From positions 4,680 through 38,554 of the forward strand of contig DYNF01000035.1 of assembly GCA_020721205.1 (NCBI GenBank): 33,875 bases of DNA, written 5' to 3'. Position numbers and translations under genes: made by a program. Source of the stretch: Prochloron sp. SulCav_FS08_3_32_3330. GTDB lineage: Bacteria; Cyanobacteriota; Cyanobacteriia; Cyanobacteriales; DYNF01. Shown here in pieces: positions 2,702 to 13,569 of the stretch (the first letter of the stretch is position 1; the number at the start of each line of letters is the position of its first letter). The notes under the pieces are model-generated. The model saw nothing but the letters and a program-made list of their open reading frames with translations. It ran no database searches and had not been told where the DNA came from.

Positions 2702-2717
2702 TGTGACAAAAATCACA
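2702..2717 (+). promoter_or_regulatory. Perfect CRP/SYCRP1-type operator
   Basis: The sequence at 2702-2717 is TGTGA-N6-TCACA with both half-sites perfect, the consensus for cAMP receptor proteins including cyanobacterial SYCRP1. Its centre (2709.5) is about 41 bp upstream of the start point predicted from the -10 box at 2738-2743, the class II activator position. It is 93 bp before the first pilin gene. From knowledge of Synechocystis, SYCRP1 activates the minor-pilin operon slr2015-slr2018, which supports this reading. The site is seen; binding and cAMP control are inferred. Confidence 0.75.
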
Positions 2718-2737
2718 TCATCAGTCATGATTAACTT

Positions 2738-2743
2738 TACAAT
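2738..2743 (+). promoter_or_regulatory. Putative -10 box of pilin operon promoter
   Basis: TACAAT at 2738-2743 matches the -10 consensus in 5 of 6 positions. No good -35 box is seen; the CRP-type operator occupies that position, as expected for an activator-dependent class II promoter. The predicted start is near 2750, giving a leader of about 60 nt. Confidence 0.55.
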
Positions 2744-2809
2744 TAAATTAAACTTCAATATATTTATTGGCAATCTTTATATTTATTTCGTATGTAGGAA
2801 TTAGGAAAA

Positions 2810-4294
2810 ATGAAAAATAAAAAATTTAACTCATTCTTAAAATTCGCTTTATCTCATCAAGCCCAAAAAAGCCCAAATCATCAAGGTTTTGTTATTCCTG
2901 TTATTTTAGGATTTGGTTTGTTTATGTTATTAGTAGCGATAATGATGATTACTCGTTCTGGAGATGATAAAGTAACGGCAATTTTACAAAAACAAACCGC
3001 CGAAAGTTTAGGTATTACGGAAACGGGTTTTAGTCGAAGTATAGAAACTCTCAGCACGGGTAATAATGGTGCTTTCTTAAAAAAAAATTATGATCCAATT
3101 AATCCTAACACCGATAAACCCTATTTGGGACCTAGTTCTACCGATGAATGGACAGGAGGTACAACTATTCAAACTACAGTCAGTAATGGGGGCTGTGATG
3201 GTAGTAGCAGTGGCACAATTACTGTTCCATTACCTACCAACTTATTAAATGGTACTACTGATAATGGTCAATACACATTATTAGCTTATAGATATGATGA
3301 TGTTAATGATAAAGGAACATTTATTTTACAAGGGAATGCTATTTTACGGGATGCCGAAGGAAATGAAGAAACTGTAGCTACATCACGCATTCAAACCACA
3401 ATTGATATTGTTGATCGAGAAAAAATATTACCTCAAAGTTTTCCGGGTTTATTTATGGAGGATATTATTAAGCTTGGTAATAATGATATGAATGCAACTT
3501 CAGCCGATCCTAGTAGTATTATCTGTGCTGAATGTGAGATATCTGATCCAGATACGGATTGCGTTGATGGTGTTCCCACAGAAGATGCCATCCATGAAGA
3601 AGCGATGGGTGCTAATCCGGGTGCAGAATTAGTCAATGTAACACCAAAATTAGGTAGACCTAATTTACCTTCCGTACCGACACCATCGGGGAATGAAATT
3701 GCTTTGGGGAGACCCGGATGTCCGGGTGGAGATGCTGATATCACTGCTTTACCACGAGCAGGAGATACTCCAAATACCACAGGTACTTTAAATGATATTC
3801 CTGCATACGAATATACAGTAGAATGTCTAAAAATTAATGGCACCAATAACTTAACAGTTACAACTACAGATTATCCAGTCCATATTTATTTAATTGGTGA
3901 TGGGGCTAGTATGACCATTGGTGGTCAAGGTTCACTCTTTCATGTGGGGGATTTTGGCGAATTTGCTATTTTCGGCAAACAAGATGATGGTACAGATGAC
4001 ACTAATCAAACCATTAGTTTAAATGGGGGCGGTAACTCGCAGTTTTTTGTATTTGCTCCTGATGCGGAAGTAGGGATTAGTGGGGGTGCTTTTGATCCTT
4101 GTGATATGGGTGGTGTAGTTTGGGCAGAAGTTTGGGATGGATCAAGTGGTACAGGGGTTGACTATTGTATTCCTGAAGGTGCGGCGGCGGCTTTAGGTGC
4201 GGCTTTTGGTTTAGATTTTGAAAGAGTTGGTTTAACTACCCGAACTTTTCAACATAGTTCTATCATTGAATGGACGAGAAAGGAGGCTAATTAA
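2810..4294 (+). CDS. PilX/GspK/HpsA-like minor pilin
   Basis: A 494-residue protein with a class III prepilin signal: a basic leader, the cleavage site G26/F27, and a ~20-residue hydrophobic helix (27-47). The mature N-terminus is FVIPV, so the usual Glu at +5 is missing. That is the hallmark of GspK/PilX-type tip pseudopilins, and cyanobacterial HpsA-type proteins are like this. The large exported domain is rich in Gly, Thr, Asn and Asp, with a Cys cluster near residues 242-252 (CAECEISDPDTDC). It begins an operon: its stop is directly followed by the ATG of the next pilin gene. It is likely to sit at the tip of a minor-pilin complex with the next genes. HpsA proteins of Nostoc are longer, so the exact orthologue is uncertain. 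Confidence 0.8.
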   Translation: MKNKKFNSFLKFALSHQAQKSPNHQGFVIPVILGFGLFMLLVAIMMITRSGDDKVTAILQKQTAESLGITETGFSRSIETLSTGNNGAFLKKNYDPINPNTDKPYLGPSSTDEWTGGTTIQTTVSNGGCDGSSSGTITVPLPTNLLNGTTDNGQYTLLAYRYDDVNDKGTFILQGNAILRDAEGNEETVATSRIQTTIDIVDREKILPQSFPGLFMEDIIKLGNNDMNATSADPSSIICAECEISDPDTDCVDGVPTEDAIHEEAMGANPGAELVNVTPKLGRPNLPSVPTPSGNEIALGRPGCPGGDADITALPRAGDTPNTTGTLNDIPAYEYTVECLKINGTNNLTVTTTDYPVHIYLIGDGASMTIGGQGSLFHVGDFGEFAIFGKQDDGTDDTNQTISLNGGGNSQFFVFAPDAEVGISGGAFDPCDMGGVVWAEVWDGSSGTGVDYCIPEGAAAALGAAFGLDFERVGLTTRTFQHSSIIEWTRKEAN

Positions 4295-4750
4295 ATGAAA
4301 AAAACTTTAAATTTTACGAATAAAGAGCAGGGATTTACCTTTATTGAGGTATTAGTGGGTATGTTAATGGCAACAGTCTTTGTTTTAATTACCACACAAG
4401 GAATTGTGATTGGCACGGTATTTAGGGTTAAAGCACAAAGACAGTCAGAAGCTCTTAACTTCATTCAACAAGACTTAGAGGAGGTAAAATTTCAAGCGGC
4501 ACAATTAACTGCGGGTACTTGTGGTAGTTATGCCACAGAATTAAACTCTGCTCTTTCTGCTCCAGACTCTCCTCAAAAGCTAGTCAATAAACCCCATAAG
4601 ATCATCCGAACTCCTACTGCTAATGGGAATGTCTTGGCACTAAGTTATAGTGTTGTTCCCATCAATGATGAAGTTGCTGATTTAACTGGAGATGAAGTTG
4701 TTAATATAACTACGGAGGTAATTCCCGATGTGGCATTTGATTGTGAATAA
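4295..4750 (+). CDS. PilV/HpsB-like prepilin (minor pilin)
   Basis: A 151-residue prepilin. The leader ends EQG, cleavage falls after G13, and the mature N-terminus F14-TFIE has Glu at +5 (E18), followed by a hydrophobic helix and the charged heptad region (RVKAQRQSEALNFIQQDLEEVK) typical of PilV/GspI-type minor pilins. It starts on the base after the previous gene's stop codon and its 3' end overlaps the next gene by 23 bp, so the three are translationally linked. A PilD-type prepilin peptidase encoded elsewhere would process it. Family-level call is firm; the subunit type (PilV/HpsB) is inferred from size and order. Confidence 0.82.
   Translation: MKKTLNFTNKEQGFTFIEVLVGMLMATVFVLITTQGIVIGTVFRVKAQRQSEALNFIQQDLEEVKFQAAQLTAGTCGSYATELNSALSAPDSPQKLVNKPHKIIRTPTANGNVLALSYSVVPINDEVADLTGDEVVNITTEVIPDVAFDCE
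4714..4719 (+). promoter_or_regulatory. Strong ribosome binding site (GGAGGT)
   Basis: GGAGGT at 4714-4719 lies 8 nt before ATG 4728, inside the end of the upstream gene. It fixes the start of the overlapping GspH-like pilin gene; good Shine-Dalgarno sites are otherwise scarce in this window. Confidence 0.75.
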
Positions 4751-5297
4751 AGATAAAGACAAATCCTTTTCCGAAAAGGGATTTACGTTAATGGAACTAC
4801 TGATCGTGATTATCTTAATCGGTATTTTATCAGCGATCGCCGCTCCAAGTTTTTTTAGTTGGCTTGTCAGAGCAAGGGTTAATGATGCTACCAGTATGGT
4901 TAAAGGAGCGATCTCCGAATCTCAACAGGAAGCGATCAGAAAAAGTAAAAGTTGTCTGATTACATTTCCTCCTAGTGATACGGTTGAGCCAACCATTGAG
5001 GGAACTTGTTTAGTCTTAGGAGAACGTATTTTAGATAAAGTCAAAATTCGCCATAATCGTGAGATTGTTTTACCTGATATTGTTAAACCAGACGGGACTA
5101 TTTTTCGACAAAATTTATTTGATTTTAAAGGAAGAACTGACGCATTGAGTGATCATTTAGTAATTGTCATTAGTCCTGAAGATAATGATAGTTATCAAAA
5201 ATGTATCGTTGTTTCCGATGGTTTAGGATTAATTAGGGAGGGTAATTATACCAGTAATGAATCTGCTGTCAATATTGCTAACTGTACCAATAATTAA
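4728..5297 (+). CDS. GspH/FimT-like minor pilin
   Basis: A 189-residue prepilin. After the leader (cleavage G18/F19), the mature protein begins FTLME with E23 at +5, then the helix LLIVIILIGILSAIAAPSFF, the typical GspH/FimT pattern. The C-terminal beta domain has three Cys residues (C66, C85 and near the end), one in KCIVVSDGLGLIREG, a motif also present in the paralogue at 8228-8731. The start is set by GGAGGT 8 nt upstream and overlaps the previous gene by 23 bp. A HIP1 octamer lies in the helix-coding part near 4833. It is probably a priming or shaft-cap pseudopilin of the same complex. Confidence 0.85.
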   Translation: MWHLIVNKDKDKSFSEKGFTLMELLIVIILIGILSAIAAPSFFSWLVRARVNDATSMVKGAISESQQEAIRKSKSCLITFPPSDTVEPTIEGTCLVLGERILDKVKIRHNREIVLPDIVKPDGTIFRQNLFDFKGRTDALSDHLVIVISPEDNDSYQKCIVVSDGLGLIREGNYTSNESAVNIANCTNN

Positions 5298-5376: not shown

Positions 5377-8019
5377 ATGAACTTTTTACATTGGTATTTA
5401 ACAAAATATTTGAAAAGAGGTAAGTCAGAACAAGGATTTACCTTAATTGAGATTTTACTAGCGGTGATGCTTAGTTCCGTTGTGTTACTGGGCATTGGCA
5501 CGGCTTTAGTTTTCGTCTTAAATTCTAATCAGAAAGCTGAAGCAAAAACCCTGCAACGTACTCAATTAAATAGGGCATTAGAATATATTACGGAAGATAT
5601 TAAAACCGCCAGGGTTATTTCTGTTGATACTAATGGCACTCCTAGTGATCTTAGTGATGATAAATTAGTCTTAGAATATTATCCAGATATTACTAACGAT
5701 ACCCCTGTGAAAATTGTGGAATATTATTTAGAGGATAAGGAAAATCCTTGGCTGGGTCCAAAAGTGATGAAAAGATATGAATTAATCCAAAGAGATATTA
5801 ATGGGGATGGTGATATGACTGATACAGTGGATGATGTGGATGAAGCAGTGATCAAAGAAGACCTCAATAATGATGGTGATATGGTTGATACGGGAATAGA
5901 TGATGTAGAGGAAACAACGACAAAAGAACAAACCTTAGTAGATGGCATTACAGAAAATGTTTTAGTTGATCCCTTTGGCTGTACTGGTACGGGAGAAAGT
6001 CTTTTCAACCAATTTGGTTTTCAAGCCTGTATTACCCAAGGTGTAGCTGAGAGTGGGGTAGATATTTATAAAGTGGCTCTCTCTCTTTCGGGTGAACTAA
6101 CTGATAATGCAGGGGATCAAGCAGATTCAGAAGTATTAAATGTCACCAGTAAAATTTTTGCCAGAAGTGTTGACCCTTCAGGCTTTGGTATTCAAGCCCC
6201 CGCAGTTACCTCAGTTCTTAATTATGATACACAAGTGGTTACTGTAACTTGGACTGATGCTACTCAAGGGGTAGAGCCTTATAGTTATTTTGTCTATCGT
6301 TGTAATGATAATATTGGTTGTACTCCGATTCCTCCTGATCCTGATGGTACGGCGGATCCTGATACCACAGAAATTGCTTTTAATATTAGTACCAATAGCC
6401 TCACTGATAATGTCAGTTCTATACCTGATGGTGAGACAATTTGTTATGTGGTTAAGGTGATTGATAATGATGATTATAATGATGTAAGCTCCCGTTCTTG
6501 TGTGACCAAAACTCCTTTATTAGTAGCTCCGAGTATTAGTAGTTTTACTAAATCAGGTACAGATATAACCGTACTCTGGAATCCTGCTACGGGTGGCAAT
6601 CCTGCTTATACCTATAAAATTTATCATTGTCAAGATACGAATATTTGCCCCCCTACTGCCTTTATTGCTGAGGGTGTAACTGGTATTGATTATCTTCATG
6701 AGGGAATCAACACGGATCCTAATATTCGTCATTGTTATAAAGTAGAGGTAAGTGATCAAAATAACACCACTGCTAGTAGTAATGATCGTTGCACCGGAGG
6801 GGTACTTTCACCACCGATTATCAGTAGTATTGATCAAACTAATCTAACTGCACCCGTGATCACATGGGATACGGCTACGGGGGGAACTGAACCTTATAAC
6901 TATACCATTACTCGTTGTGATACTACTCCCACAGGCACTTGTACCACCTATAGTGATATTGACACAGAAACAGCAACCACTTTTACTGATAATATCACCA
7001 GTATTCTCAATGGTCAAAAAGTTTGTTACAAGATAAATGTCAGCGATAGTGCTAGTCCTAATGCCACTGCTCCCAGTACGGAAGATTGTTTTATTAAGGG
7101 AAGTCCCTTAGTCGCACCAGGGGTTAACATTTCTACTGAAACCAGTGGAGTTGTGACTTTAACATGGTCAGCCGCTACAGGCGGTTCTAGTCCTTACACT
7201 TATACGATTGAGCGCTGTGATACTTTTTCTAGTTGTACTGTATTCTCCAGTCAAGGGACAACCTCAAATTTAACTGTTACTAACAATGTAAGCTCGATCG
7301 CTGGAGGACGAGAAATTTACTATCGGATTAAAGTAACTGATAGTGTGGGAACAGAAGAAACGGGTAGTGAAAATCATTTCACCAAAAGTTCAACCCTTGA
7401 TACGCCTACCATCTCGATTGATGGTGCTAATGCTGTTCAACCTAATCTAACTTGGGCGACGATCAGTAATGCTACTGCTTATGATGTATATCGTTGTTCT
7501 GGCTCTAATTGCGATCCTACGACTGGAACTTTAGCACAATCTCCTACTACCAATAGTTATGATGAATCAACTAATCCCACCAATACAGGTGATCAATGGT
7601 GTTATGCGGTGAAAGCTAAAAATACTTCGTTAAATTTAGTGAGTGGTTTTAGTAATCAAGTTTGTGGTTTAACTAATGGTGTGATTGCTCCCACGATCAC
7701 AAGTATTGATTTTAGCAAGAAAAATGTCGCTGGTGATGCTTTTACTCCGAGTCCCTCTACAAGTTCATTTGATGCTGTAGTCAACTGGCAATCGATCGTG
7801 GGTACTACTAGCTATAAACTATTTTACTGCCTCGGAAATGGTTGTACGCCGAATACTAATGAGATTACTCCTAATGCTGTTAATAGTAATCAAACTCATT
7901 ATGATGTAACAGGGACAAAAGATATTTATTACTGTTATGGAGTAAAAACAGTCAAAGATGGAAATATCAGTAATTTAAGTAATGTCGTTTGTGTGCAGTC
8001 TGATCACGAATGGCCCTAA
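5377..8019 (+). CDS. PilW-like prepilin with Cys-rich FnIII-like repeats
   Basis: An 880-residue, unusually large minor pilin. Residues 1-80 are a PilW/GspJ-type prepilin N-terminus (cleavage G20/F21, E25 at +5, then a helix and the NRALEYITEDIKTAR region). Residues 140-183 hold two similar acidic segments, DINGDGDMTDT and DLNNDGDMVDT, like EF-hand/dockerin calcium loops. From about residue 274 there are about six repeats of 85-100 residues. Each opens with (A/S/T)Px(I/V) and a TW strand, has an ATGGxxPYxY-like turn, a Y/R-x-C pair and a CYxxKV strand, resembling Cys-stabilised fibronectin-III domains. Such repeats suggest an adhesive surface structure. The gene lies 79 bp after the previous pilin gene and ends at a strong terminator. 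PilW/HpsC type is inferred. Confidence 0.82.
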   Translation: MNFLHWYLTKYLKRGKSEQGFTLIEILLAVMLSSVVLLGIGTALVFVLNSNQKAEAKTLQRTQLNRALEYITEDIKTARVISVDTNGTPSDLSDDKLVLEYYPDITNDTPVKIVEYYLEDKENPWLGPKVMKRYELIQRDINGDGDMTDTVDDVDEAVIKEDLNNDGDMVDTGIDDVEETTTKEQTLVDGITENVLVDPFGCTGTGESLFNQFGFQACITQGVAESGVDIYKVALSLSGELTDNAGDQADSEVLNVTSKIFARSVDPSGFGIQAPAVTSVLNYDTQVVTVTWTDATQGVEPYSYFVYRCNDNIGCTPIPPDPDGTADPDTTEIAFNISTNSLTDNVSSIPDGETICYVVKVIDNDDYNDVSSRSCVTKTPLLVAPSISSFTKSGTDITVLWNPATGGNPAYTYKIYHCQDTNICPPTAFIAEGVTGIDYLHEGINTDPNIRHCYKVEVSDQNNTTASSNDRCTGGVLSPPIISSIDQTNLTAPVITWDTATGGTEPYNYTITRCDTTPTGTCTTYSDIDTETATTFTDNITSILNGQKVCYKINVSDSASPNATAPSTEDCFIKGSPLVAPGVNISTETSGVVTLTWSAATGGSSPYTYTIERCDTFSSCTVFSSQGTTSNLTVTNNVSSIAGGREIYYRIKVTDSVGTEETGSENHFTKSSTLDTPTISIDGANAVQPNLTWATISNATAYDVYRCSGSNCDPTTGTLAQSPTTNSYDESTNPTNTGDQWCYAVKAKNTSLNLVSGFSNQVCGLTNGVIAPTITSIDFSKKNVAGDAFTPSPSTSSFDAVVNWQSIVGTTSYKLFYCLGNGCTPNTNEITPNAVNSNQTHYDVTGTKDIYYCYGVKTVKDGNISNLSNVVCVQSDHEWP

Positions 8020-8038: not shown

Positions 8039-8071
8039 AAGTCGGGGATTTTGAACATCCCCGACTTTTTT
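8039..8071 (+). terminator. Strong rho-independent terminator
   Basis: Perfect 10-bp arms at 8039-8048 (AAGTCGGGGA) and 8058-8067 (TCCCCGACTT) are followed by a T-run to 8071. It closes the first four pilin genes, so the last pilin gene at 8228 probably has its own promoter. The same stem sequence is used at 20422-20485. Confidence 0.9.
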
Positions 8072-8227: not shown

Positions 8228-8731
8228 ATGATTAAATCTTTATATAATAATCAAGGTTTTACCCTCTTTGAAGTGATCGTCGTCACTCTGATTATTGGTA
8301 TATTAAGCGCGATCGCCGTCCCAAGCTTCTTGGGTTTTCTTAATCGTGGGAAAGTTAATAATGGGCTGAATGTTTTACGCAGTACAATCCAAATTACTCA
8401 AAGAGAAGCAATTAAAAGGAGTAAAACTTGTAGCTTAAATTTACCTGATAATGACACAAGTAATCCTATTCTTAATAGTGAATGTTTAAGTGTAGGAAGT
8501 AGAACCTTAAATGATGTAATGATTAAATATAATAATCCTAGTGGTCAAAAAATTAACTTTAATTTTCGGGGTAATACTAGCCCTTTAAGAACAATTGTTA
8601 TTTATAATAATAATACTAAATATAAAAGATGTGTCGTAATTTCTAATGGTATTGGGATGGTGCGTACTGGAGTTTATACTAATAATAATTTAAGTAGTAT
8701 TTCTGCTGATTATTGTGATACTACACCTTAA
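8228..8731 (+). CDS. GspH/FimT-like minor pilin, second paralogue
   Basis: A 167-residue prepilin: cleavage G10/F11, mature FTLFE with E15 at +5, helix VIVVTLIIGILSAIAVPSF with a HIP1 octamer in its coding DNA. It is a paralogue of the protein at 4728-5297: both share REAI(K/R)KSK-C, a second central Cys, and the C-terminal K/R-CVV(I/S)NG(I)GM/L-x-R-x-G-x-Y pattern. It is separated from the operon by a terminator and about 160 bp. It probably belongs to the same pilus or secretion complex but may be regulated apart. A fragment of a third gene of this type lies at 11980-12030. Confidence 0.85.
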   Translation: MIKSLYNNQGFTLFEVIVVTLIIGILSAIAVPSFLGFLNRGKVNNGLNVLRSTIQITQREAIKRSKTCSLNLPDNDTSNPILNSECLSVGSRTLNDVMIKYNNPSGQKINFNFRGNTSPLRTIVIYNNNTKYKRCVVISNGIGMVRTGVYTNNNLSSISADYCDTTP

Positions 8732-12118: not shown

Positions 12119-12793
12119 CTAAATTCGATCAGGATCAATGCCATTTTCCCTTAATAAAGTTGCTAATCTTTCTGATTTTTGACGCTGTTCTTCTAACTGT
12201 TGTTGAGTATTATTCAACTGTTGAGAAATCTCATTATAGGATAAAAATTGACTCCCATCAGGACGATAAATAATTAATTCTTCTGAGGATAAATCAAAAG
12301 TTATACCTAAACGGGGACTTCTCCACTGATCAATATTCTCTATAGACTCTAAACCATAATCAGTCCTCAACCAACCCTCTAAAATATTGGTATCAGGATC
12401 ATAAATATAGTATTCTTCTACTCCATAACGCTCATAAAACAGTAGTTTTTGACTCATTTCTTTGGAAGTATTACCCGGAGATAAAATCTCAAAAACTACT
12501 TGAGGAGGAATATTATTTTCCACCCATTGTTTATAAGAGCCTCGATCGCCCTTGGGACGACCAAAAGCTACCATGACATCAGGAGCGTTAACGATTTTAT
12601 TATTGCCCTCGACGGGATACCAAAATAAATCTCCCGCTACAAATACCTCTGGATCCTCAGCAAATAACCAATCTAAATTTTGTTCAATTACTAAAATCCA
12701 GTGAAATTGTACTGTATTATTTGCTATTGGTTTACCATCACTATCAGGATAAATAATTTCTGTCGTTGTGGGACGCTCAAGTTGAGAAACCAT
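12119..12793 (-). CDS. Uma2 family protein, tandem copy A
   Basis: A 224-residue Uma2/DUF820 protein. The family core is visible: MVAFGRPKGDRGSYKQWVE, then PPQVVFEILSPGNTSKEM (the acidic core strand) and YGVEEYYIYDPD. Residues after about 187 form a Gln/Glu-rich coiled coil (QLNNTQQQLEEQRQKSERL) ending in the tail ATLLRENGIDPD, common in this cyanobacterial subfamily. Residues 1-189 are identical to copy B (12895-13569); only the coil differs. Each copy has its own upstream region and hairpin, so they are separate transcription units. Function unknown; a restriction-endonuclease-like fold is known for the family. Confidence 0.9.
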   Translation of the reverse strand: MVSQLERPTTTEIIYPDSDGKPIANNTVQFHWILVIEQNLDWLFAEDPEVFVAGDLFWYPVEGNNKIVNAPDVMVAFGRPKGDRGSYKQWVENNIPPQVVFEILSPGNTSKEMSQKLLFYERYGVEEYYIYDPDTNILEGWLRTDYGLESIENIDQWRSPRLGITFDLSSEELIIYRPDGSQFLSYNEISQQLNNTQQQLEEQRQKSERLATLLRENGIDPDRI

Positions 12794-12894: not shown

Positions 12895-13569
12895 TTAAAT
12901 CAGATCAGGATCAATGCCATTTGCTCTTAATAAAGCGGCTAATTGATCAGCACGTTGACGCTCTTGATCAACACGTTGACGCTCTTGATCTAACTGCATA
13001 GAAATCTCATTATAGGATAAAAATTGACTTCCATCAGGACGATAAATAATTAATTCTTCTGAGGATAAATCAAAAGTTATACCTAAACGGGGACTTCTCC
13101 ACTGATCAATATTCTCTATAGACTCTAAACCATAATCAGTCCTCAACCAACCCTCTAAAATATTGGTATCAGGATCATAAATATAGTATTCTTCTACTCC
13201 ATAACGCTCATAAAACAGTAGTTTTTGACTCATTTCTTTGGAAGTATTACCCGGAGATAAAATCTCAAAAACTACTTGAGGAGGAATATTATTTTCCACC
13301 CATTGTTTATAAGAGCCTCGATCGCCCTTGGGACGACCAAAAGCTACCATGACATCAGGAGCGTTAACGATTTTATTATTGCCCTCGACGGGATACCAAA
13401 ATAAATCTCCCGCTACAAATACCTCTGGATCCTCAGCAAATAACCAATCTAAATTTTGTTCAATTACTAAAATCCAGTGAAATTGTACTGTATTATTTGC
13501 TATTGGTTTACCATCACTATCAGGATAAATAATTTCTGTCGTTGTGGGACGCTCAAGTTGAGAAACCAT
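12895..13569 (-). CDS. Uma2 family protein, tandem copy B
   Basis: A 224-residue Uma2/DUF820 protein identical to copy A in its folded domain. Its C-terminal coil is different: MQLDQERQRVDQERQRADQL, then AALLRANGIDPDLI. The coil is built from 21-bp (7-residue) repeats. Its last 45-50 bp of coding DNA are nearly identical to the 3' end of the third Uma2 gene (13671-14486), although the bodies of these two proteins differ. This suggests recombination through the shared 3' tails. Own terminator downstream at 12850-12882. Confidence 0.9.
   Translation of the reverse strand: MVSQLERPTTTEIIYPDSDGKPIANNTVQFHWILVIEQNLDWLFAEDPEVFVAGDLFWYPVEGNNKIVNAPDVMVAFGRPKGDRGSYKQWVENNIPPQVVFEILSPGNTSKEMSQKLLFYERYGVEEYYIYDPDTNILEGWLRTDYGLESIENIDQWRSPRLGITFDLSSEELIIYRPDGSQFLSYNEISMQLDQERQRVDQERQRADQLAALLRANGIDPDLI

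What the first reader, a model, noticed from the sequence alone, without database searches (positions are those of the whole stretch)
2702..2750. Perfect CRP operator in class II position before the minor-pilin operon
TGTGA-N6-TCACA is exact, centred ~41 bp before the start predicted by TACAAT at 2738. A SYCRP1-controlled minor-pilin operon (slr2015 onward) is known in Synechocystis, where cAMP controls motility. This predicts light/cAMP control of this Cys-rich FnIII pilin complex in another lineage.
Basis: partly seen in the sequence, partly recalled or inferred. Interest (0 to 1): 0.7.

Follow-up and report, generated by a model that had tools for sequence, protein, structure and literature searches.

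The report
cAMP-CRP operator before minor-pilin operon
A perfect binding site for the cAMP-sensing regulator CRP sits just before a set of cyanobacterial genes for minor parts of the cell's retractable pili, and the same arrangement recurs in related cyanobacteria that have the regulator but not in those that have lost it, so pilus make-up is probably under cAMP control well beyond the one model species where this was known.

Summary
The palindrome is real: TGTGACAAAAATCACA at 2702-2717, 100 bp (centre) before ORF1. Perfect copies are not in excess genome-wide (7 found, about 4.7 expected), so one copy proves little alone. Comparison settles it. ORF1 is a PilX-type minor pilin related to the Synechocystis equivalents of the known SYCRP1 targets CccS (slr1667) and PilX2 (slr0442). 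Upstream of 120 homologous genes in 99 genomes of the order, a palindrome with at most one mismatch occurs in 25 of 92 loci where the genome has a CRP orthologue (shuffles: 0.45) and in 0 of 28 where it has none. The window's genome has that CRP (cAMP-pocket and RETxxR residues intact) and many adenylate cyclases. TAN3T boxes are enriched 20-23 nt past the promoter-proximal half-site; the window's TACAAT lies at 20 nt, supporting class II geometry, though a class I promoter (TTTACA-17-TATATT, centre -61.5) is not excluded. Many relatives carry an extra TCACA half-site two helical turns downstream. Light or cAMP control here is inferred, not shown. The FnIII label is weak. This contradicts a 2009 conclusion that CRP control of pilus genes is restricted to two strains.

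The parts
2702..2717 (+). CRP operator, perfect TGTGA-N6-TCACA
   Evidence: conserved upstream of homologues
2737..2741 (+). TTACA: degenerate match to the extra TCACA half-site that relatives carry 22-23 bp downstream of the operator's second half
   Evidence: in the window one mismatch and 1-2 nt further off, so uncertain here
2738..2743 (+). Candidate -10 box TACAAT, 20 nt after the operator (class II; predicted start near 2750)
   Evidence: same hexamer 21 nt after the site in the slr1667 equivalent (L151)
2736..2764 (+). Rival promoter TTTACA (2736-2741) - 17 nt - TATATT (2759-2764); would put the operator at -61.5 (class I)
   Evidence: 10 of 12 consensus matches; not more such sites than chance in the region
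2810..4294 (+). ORF1, PilX-type minor pilin-like protein (494 aa), first gene of the operon
4295..4750 (+). ORF2, PilV-like minor pilin (151 aa)
   Evidence: N_methyl, PilV model weak; homologous over full length to a Synechocystis minor pilin, E=5e-25
4728..5297 (+). ORF3, GspH/FimT-like minor pilin (189 aa), overlaps ORF2
   Evidence: N_methyl; pilin/pseudopilin models
5377..8019 (+). ORF4, PilW-like minor pilin with a long cysteine-rich C-terminal extension (880 aa, 24 Cys)
8039..8067 (.). Strong GC hairpin after ORF4, possible terminator
8228..8731 (+). ORF5, GspH-like minor pilin (167 aa); operon membership uncertain because of the hairpin

Best explanation
2702-2717 is a functional operator for the cAMP-CRP (SYCRP1-type) regulator that activates the PilX-PilV-GspH-PilW minor-pilin operon starting at 2810. 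Adenylate cyclases raise cAMP; the cAMP-loaded CRP dimer binds the palindrome through its RETxxR helix; RNA polymerase is recruited to an adjacent promoter, most likely with TACAAT (2738-2743) as -10 and start near 2750, i.e. class II at about -41; the operon then supplies the minor pilins that set pilus function. Shown: palindrome, CRP orthologue, cyclases, gene order, conservation limited to CRP-bearing genomes, -10 spacing statistics. Inferred: binding, activation rather than repression, start site, physiological signal.
For: Exact palindrome. CRP orthologue L008, one of 14 cNMP-domain proteins, keeps the E and R-S of the cAMP pocket and RETVTR in the recognition helix and has orthologues in 335 of 391 order genomes. 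At least seven cyclases with the lysine and aspartate typical of adenylate cyclases. Palindrome with at most 1 mismatch in 25/92 CRP+ loci against 0.45 in shuffles, 0/28 in CRP- loci, Fisher p=0.0009 by locus, 0.01 by genome; control patterns near zero at this stringency. Such sites come from the window's family and at least five others. ORF1 belongs to the family of the slr1667 and slr0442 equivalents, whose sites are letter for letter those published (PMC2633013 Table 1). TAN3T at 20-23 nt past the proximal half-site in 13/31 against 4.1, matching the published ~22 bp (PMC2633013).
Against: No genome-wide excess of perfect sites. Most homologues (67 of 92 CRP+ loci) lack a site with at most 1 mismatch. 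Two f29 relatives with the most similar operon have only 2-mismatch versions, and the closest ORF1 relative (L019, 39%) has one only at -251. The 20-23 window and the re-alignment on the proximal half-site were chosen after seeing the data, and the simpler -10 scan was not significant. No binding or expression data.
Confidence: 0.85

Rival explanations
1. CRP operator, but class I: promoter TTTACA(2736-2741)-17-TATATT(2759-2764), start about 2771, operator centred at -61.5. TACAAT is not the -10.
For: Consensus scan finds this pair with 10 of 12 matches; -61.5 is a standard class I position (general knowledge).
Against: Such pairs are as common in shuffles. Across 31 non-redundant relatives TAN3T is enriched only at 20-23 nt past the proximal half-site; cyanobacterial CRP promoters are reported with the -10 about 22 bp downstream (PMC2633013).
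Confidence: 0.25
2. Chance palindrome without function.
For: 7 perfect copies in the genome against about 4.7 expected; two of the seven lie in coding sequence and one in a likely terminator.
Against: Expected 0.0002 in this upstream region; same element at similar distance before homologous genes far above shuffles and absent from CRP-less genomes.
Confidence: 0.05
3. The site is bound by another CRP/FNR-family protein rather than the L008 CRP.
For: The genome has 14 cNMP-domain hits, including a CRP-like paralogue (L010) and NtcA.
Against: NtcA prefers GTA-N8-TAC (general knowledge); L010 lacks the RETxxR helix and scores below the Pfam HTH cut-off; site presence follows presence of the L008 orthologue.
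Confidence: 0.07

Closest known systems
SYCRP1-activated slr1667 (cccS) promoter of Synechocystis PCC 6803
   Same: Same palindrome type; TACAAT about 21 nt downstream in the Synechocystis equivalent (L151); the product is a homologue of ORF1.
   Different: cccS stands apart from pilV/gspH/pilW genes in the Synechocystis genome examined, whereas ORF1 leads the whole minor-pilin operon here; lineage differs.
slr0442 (PilX2), under SyCRP1/2 control
   Same: Homologue of ORF1 with a perfect CRP palindrome upstream (L200).
   Different: Single gene, longer protein, larger distance from site to start.
slr2015-slr2018 (pilA9-pilA12) operon, positively regulated by SYCRP1
   Same: A multi-gene minor-pilin operon activated through SYCRP1, as proposed here.
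   Different: Published candidate site is weak (GGTGTTTATTGTCACA at -346, PMC2633013); direct orthology with the window operon could not be tested.
hps operon pseudopilins (HpsB, HpsC)
   Same: Weak pseudopilin N-terminal similarity of ORF2 and ORF4.
   Different: Scores far below the curated cut-offs.

Membership tests
cAMP-CRP (SYCRP1-type) controlled cyanobacterial promoter | TGTGA-N6-TCACA palindrome upstream of the gene | tested here: met
   2702-2717, no mismatch
cAMP-CRP (SYCRP1-type) controlled cyanobacterial promoter | -10 box TAN3T about 22 bp downstream of the site | tested here: met
   TACAAT 20 nt after the site; 20-23 nt is the enriched spacing in relatives
cAMP-CRP (SYCRP1-type) controlled cyanobacterial promoter | CRP orthologue with cAMP pocket and TGTGA-reading helix in the same genome | tested here: met
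   L008
cAMP-CRP (SYCRP1-type) controlled cyanobacterial promoter | Adenylate cyclases present | tested here: met
   15 PF00211 hits, at least seven with adenylate-type residues
cAMP-CRP (SYCRP1-type) controlled cyanobacterial promoter | Conserved only where CRP is present | tested here: met
   25/92 against 0/28 loci at up to 1 mismatch; phylogenetic non-independence not corrected
cAMP-CRP (SYCRP1-type) controlled cyanobacterial promoter | Direct CRP-cAMP binding and cAMP-dependent transcription | not testable with these tools
   needs gel shift and expression data
CccS/PilX2 (DUF7305) family of PilX-type minor pilins | Full-length profile match to the slr1667 and slr0442 equivalents | tested here: met
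   hhalign probability 100 and 99.8 with the ORF1-family profile; direct pairwise hit of ORF1 to the CccS equivalent only E=6e-6
CccS/PilX2 (DUF7305) family of PilX-type minor pilins | Pfam DUF7305 domain | tested here: inconclusive
   Found in relatives, not in ORF1 itself even at E=10
slr2015-slr2018 operon | Orthology of the genes | tested here: inconclusive
   PCC 6803 not held; a Synechocystis pilV-gspH-gspH-pilW operon with a 1-mismatch CRP site (L235) is homologous, but published primers for pilA9-slr2018 do not match it

The most novel reading that the evidence does not exclude
Across one cyanobacterial order the PilX-led minor-pilin loci form a conserved core of the cAMP-CRP regulon, with a hitherto undescribed two-part operator in many lineages: a strong palindrome plus a TCACA half-site 22-23 bp downstream, so that a second CRP dimer, guided by a single half-site, takes the class II position and the palindrome moves to about -64.
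Probability: 0.5. Interest if true: 0.65.

Novelty: new member of a known kind. Interest (0 to 1): 0.52.

Why it matters
A 2009 genome-wide study concluded that CRP control of pilus genes is likely restricted to two strains (PMC2633013). The conserved operators found here point the other way: cAMP control of the minor pilins that define what a pilus does appears widespread in the order and is absent where CRP is absent. It makes a question raised in a 2025 review, how different minor pilins define pilus function and are selected by signals (PMC12288463), testable in many strains through one operator.

Tried and rejected
Genome-wide excess of perfect palindromes: none to speak of. A simple -10 scan from the palindrome end showed no significant single spacing; only after separating loci by the proximal half-site did the 20-23 nt peak appear. 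Identifying L235 with the published pilA9 operon by primer sequences failed; its neighbour, a copper-ATPase-like gene, suggests pilA5-pilA8 instead, which is inference from memory. Autoregulation of crp: no site with at most 1 mismatch in the 500 bp upstream of nine orthologues. HpsA identity for ORF1: no NCBIfam hit.

Full report
Observation. TGTGACAAAAATCACA lies at 2702-2717 on the + strand, exact in all ten specified bases, and is the only perfect copy in the window. Its centre is 100 bp before the ATG of ORF1 at 2810. TACAAT starts 20 nt after its end (2738-2743). By composition 0.00019 perfect copies are expected in the 293-bp upstream region, 0.034 in the window and 4.7 in the 4.73-Mb genome. 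The genome has 7: this one, two before tandem copies of a high-light-inducible-type gene, two inside coding sequence, one in what looks like a terminator 3' of pstB and one near a contig end. So the palindrome by itself is weak evidence; position and conservation have to decide.

The regulator. The genome holds 14 cNMP-binding-domain proteins. Orthologues with the same motifs are in Synechocystis-type genomes and most of the order. A second CRP-like protein, L010, keeps the pocket but not the recognition helix. Fifteen class III cyclase domains are present, seven of them strong hits with the lysine (EKIKTIGD) and aspartate (YDLWGD) typical of adenylate cyclases, several fused to CHASE2, CHASE4, PAS or GAF sensors. 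Type IV pilus-type ATPases are present.

The genes. ORF1 (494 aa) has no Pfam or NCBIfam hit of its own, but its homologues do (DUF7305). Its N-terminus (GFVIPVILGFGLFMLLV...TAESLGITETGFSR) and its place in front of PilV-like, GspH-like and PilW-like prepilins make it a PilX-type minor pilin; this name is inference. The order PilX-PilV-GspH-PilW recurs in relatives (L202, L205, L206, L207, L210, L212, L236). ORF4 is PilW-like at its N-terminus and then carries a long extension; 24 cysteines are confirmed, while fn3 is only E = 1.7. A strong hairpin at 8039-8067 makes membership of ORF5 uncertain.

Link to known CRP targets. In a Synechocystis-type genome (G291) two ORF1 homologues carry, letter for letter, the sites listed for slr1667 (TGTGATCTGGGTCACA, L198/L151) and slr0442 (TGTGATCCAGATCACA, L200) in PMC2633013 Table 1. 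The ORF1-family profile, built without them, matches both over most of their length (hhalign probability 100 and 99.8). slr1667 is directly bound by SYCRP1 (PMC7076178) and is CccS in the literature; slr0442 is now called the minor pilin PilX2 and counted among genes under LexA or SyCRP1/2 control (PMC12313861). So ORF1 belongs to the protein family of established CRP targets. A named genome, Synechocystis salina LEGE 00031, shows the same (L213, site TGTGATCCGGGTCACA).

Conservation test. First set: 28 upstream regions, excluding the window; 11 have a palindrome with at most 2 mismatches at -50 to -150, against 0.96 in dinucleotide shuffles (maximum 5 of 1000 runs) and 0 for the reversed pattern. 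Second set: 120 loci in 99 genomes including most of the first. In genomes with a CRP orthologue 13, 25 and 38 of 91-92 loci have 0, at most 1 and at most 2 mismatches (shuffles 0.01, 0.45, 6.45); in genomes without it 0, 0 and 1 of 28 (shuffles 0, 0.05, 1.39). Fisher p for at most 1 mismatch is 0.0009 by locus and 0.01 by genome, 0.003 and 0.034 if low-completeness genomes are dropped. These tests ignore shared ancestry. Sites with at most 1 mismatch come from five other families of the order besides the window's (handles). About three quarters of CRP+ loci lack such a site, so control is frequent, not universal.

Promoter geometry. In the slr1667 equivalent TACAAT lies 21 nt after the palindrome, in the window 20 nt. 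After removing near-duplicates (31 loci), TAN3T measured from the palindrome end, or from an extra TCACA-like half-site where present, is enriched at 20-23 nt (13 of 31, 4.1 expected; none of 5000 shuffles as high) and in no other 4-nt bin. This agrees with the ~22 bp reported for cyanobacterial CRP promoters (PMC2633013) and with class II activation. Caveat: the bin and the re-alignment were settled after inspection; without re-alignment the scan was not significant. The rival promoter TTTACA-17-TATATT would put the operator at -61.5.

An unexpected extra. In 10 of 31 non-redundant relatives an exact TCACA lies 17-20 nt after the palindrome (0.13 expected; no other TCACA within 60 nt), i.e. 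22-25 bp from the palindrome's second half. In several of these the -10-like box moves about 22 nt further down (L180, L023: TAAAAT at 44). I read this as a second CRP dimer, with one good half-site, in the class II position next to the upstream dimer. In the window the corresponding letters are TTACA at a slightly longer spacing and overlap TACAAT, so here I keep the simple single-operator reading.

What is known and what is new. Known: SYCRP1 binds cAMP and TGTGAN6TCACA, binds upstream of slr1667, positively regulates slr2015-slr2018, and blue light acts through Cya1 and cAMP in Synechocystis (PMC2633013, PMC7076178, PMC7690835). New here: the operator in front of the intact PilX-led operon in another lineage, its recurrence across the order and its absence where CRP is absent. 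PMC2633013 had concluded that the function is likely restricted to two strains. Light control in this organism remains a prediction.

Noticed in passing
L001 and L002, site at 1501-1516 (G000:C37:50185 and 50824): Two tandem identical high-light-inducible-type genes (81 aa), each with the perfect site TGTGATTAACATCACA about 92 bp upstream and TACAAT about 24 nt after it: a second candidate CRP target in this genome.
   Followed up: partly
L023, L092, L150, L180, L189, L191 and others, 17-20 nt after the palindrome: Extra exact TCACA half-site phased 22-23 bp downstream of the palindrome's second half, far above chance: possible two-dimer CRP operator.
   Followed up: partly
L203:3595-3833 and L208:5995-6281: A perfect CRP palindrome lies between ORF1 and a divergent prepilin gene, so one operator may serve both.
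   Followed up: no
L235:2065-2080: Synechocystis-type pilV-gspH-gspH-pilW operon without a leading pilX, with a 1-mismatch CRP site; in L236 pilX heads the same set, suggesting the operon was split in part of the Synechocystis lineage.
   Followed up: partly
L005:1501-1516: Perfect CRP-like palindrome inside a longer inverted repeat (AATTGTGATTTTGATCACAATT) downstream of pstB, probably a terminator rather than an operator.
   Followed up: no
window 12119-12793 and 12895-13569: Two nearly identical adjacent 224-aa genes on the minus strand (recent tandem duplication, diverged only near the C-terminus).
   Followed up: no
genomes of family f14 (G013, G040, G063, G082, G099, G116): A group without a detected CRP orthologue that keeps ORF1-family pilins but not the palindrome: a natural test case for loss of cAMP control.
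   Followed up: partly
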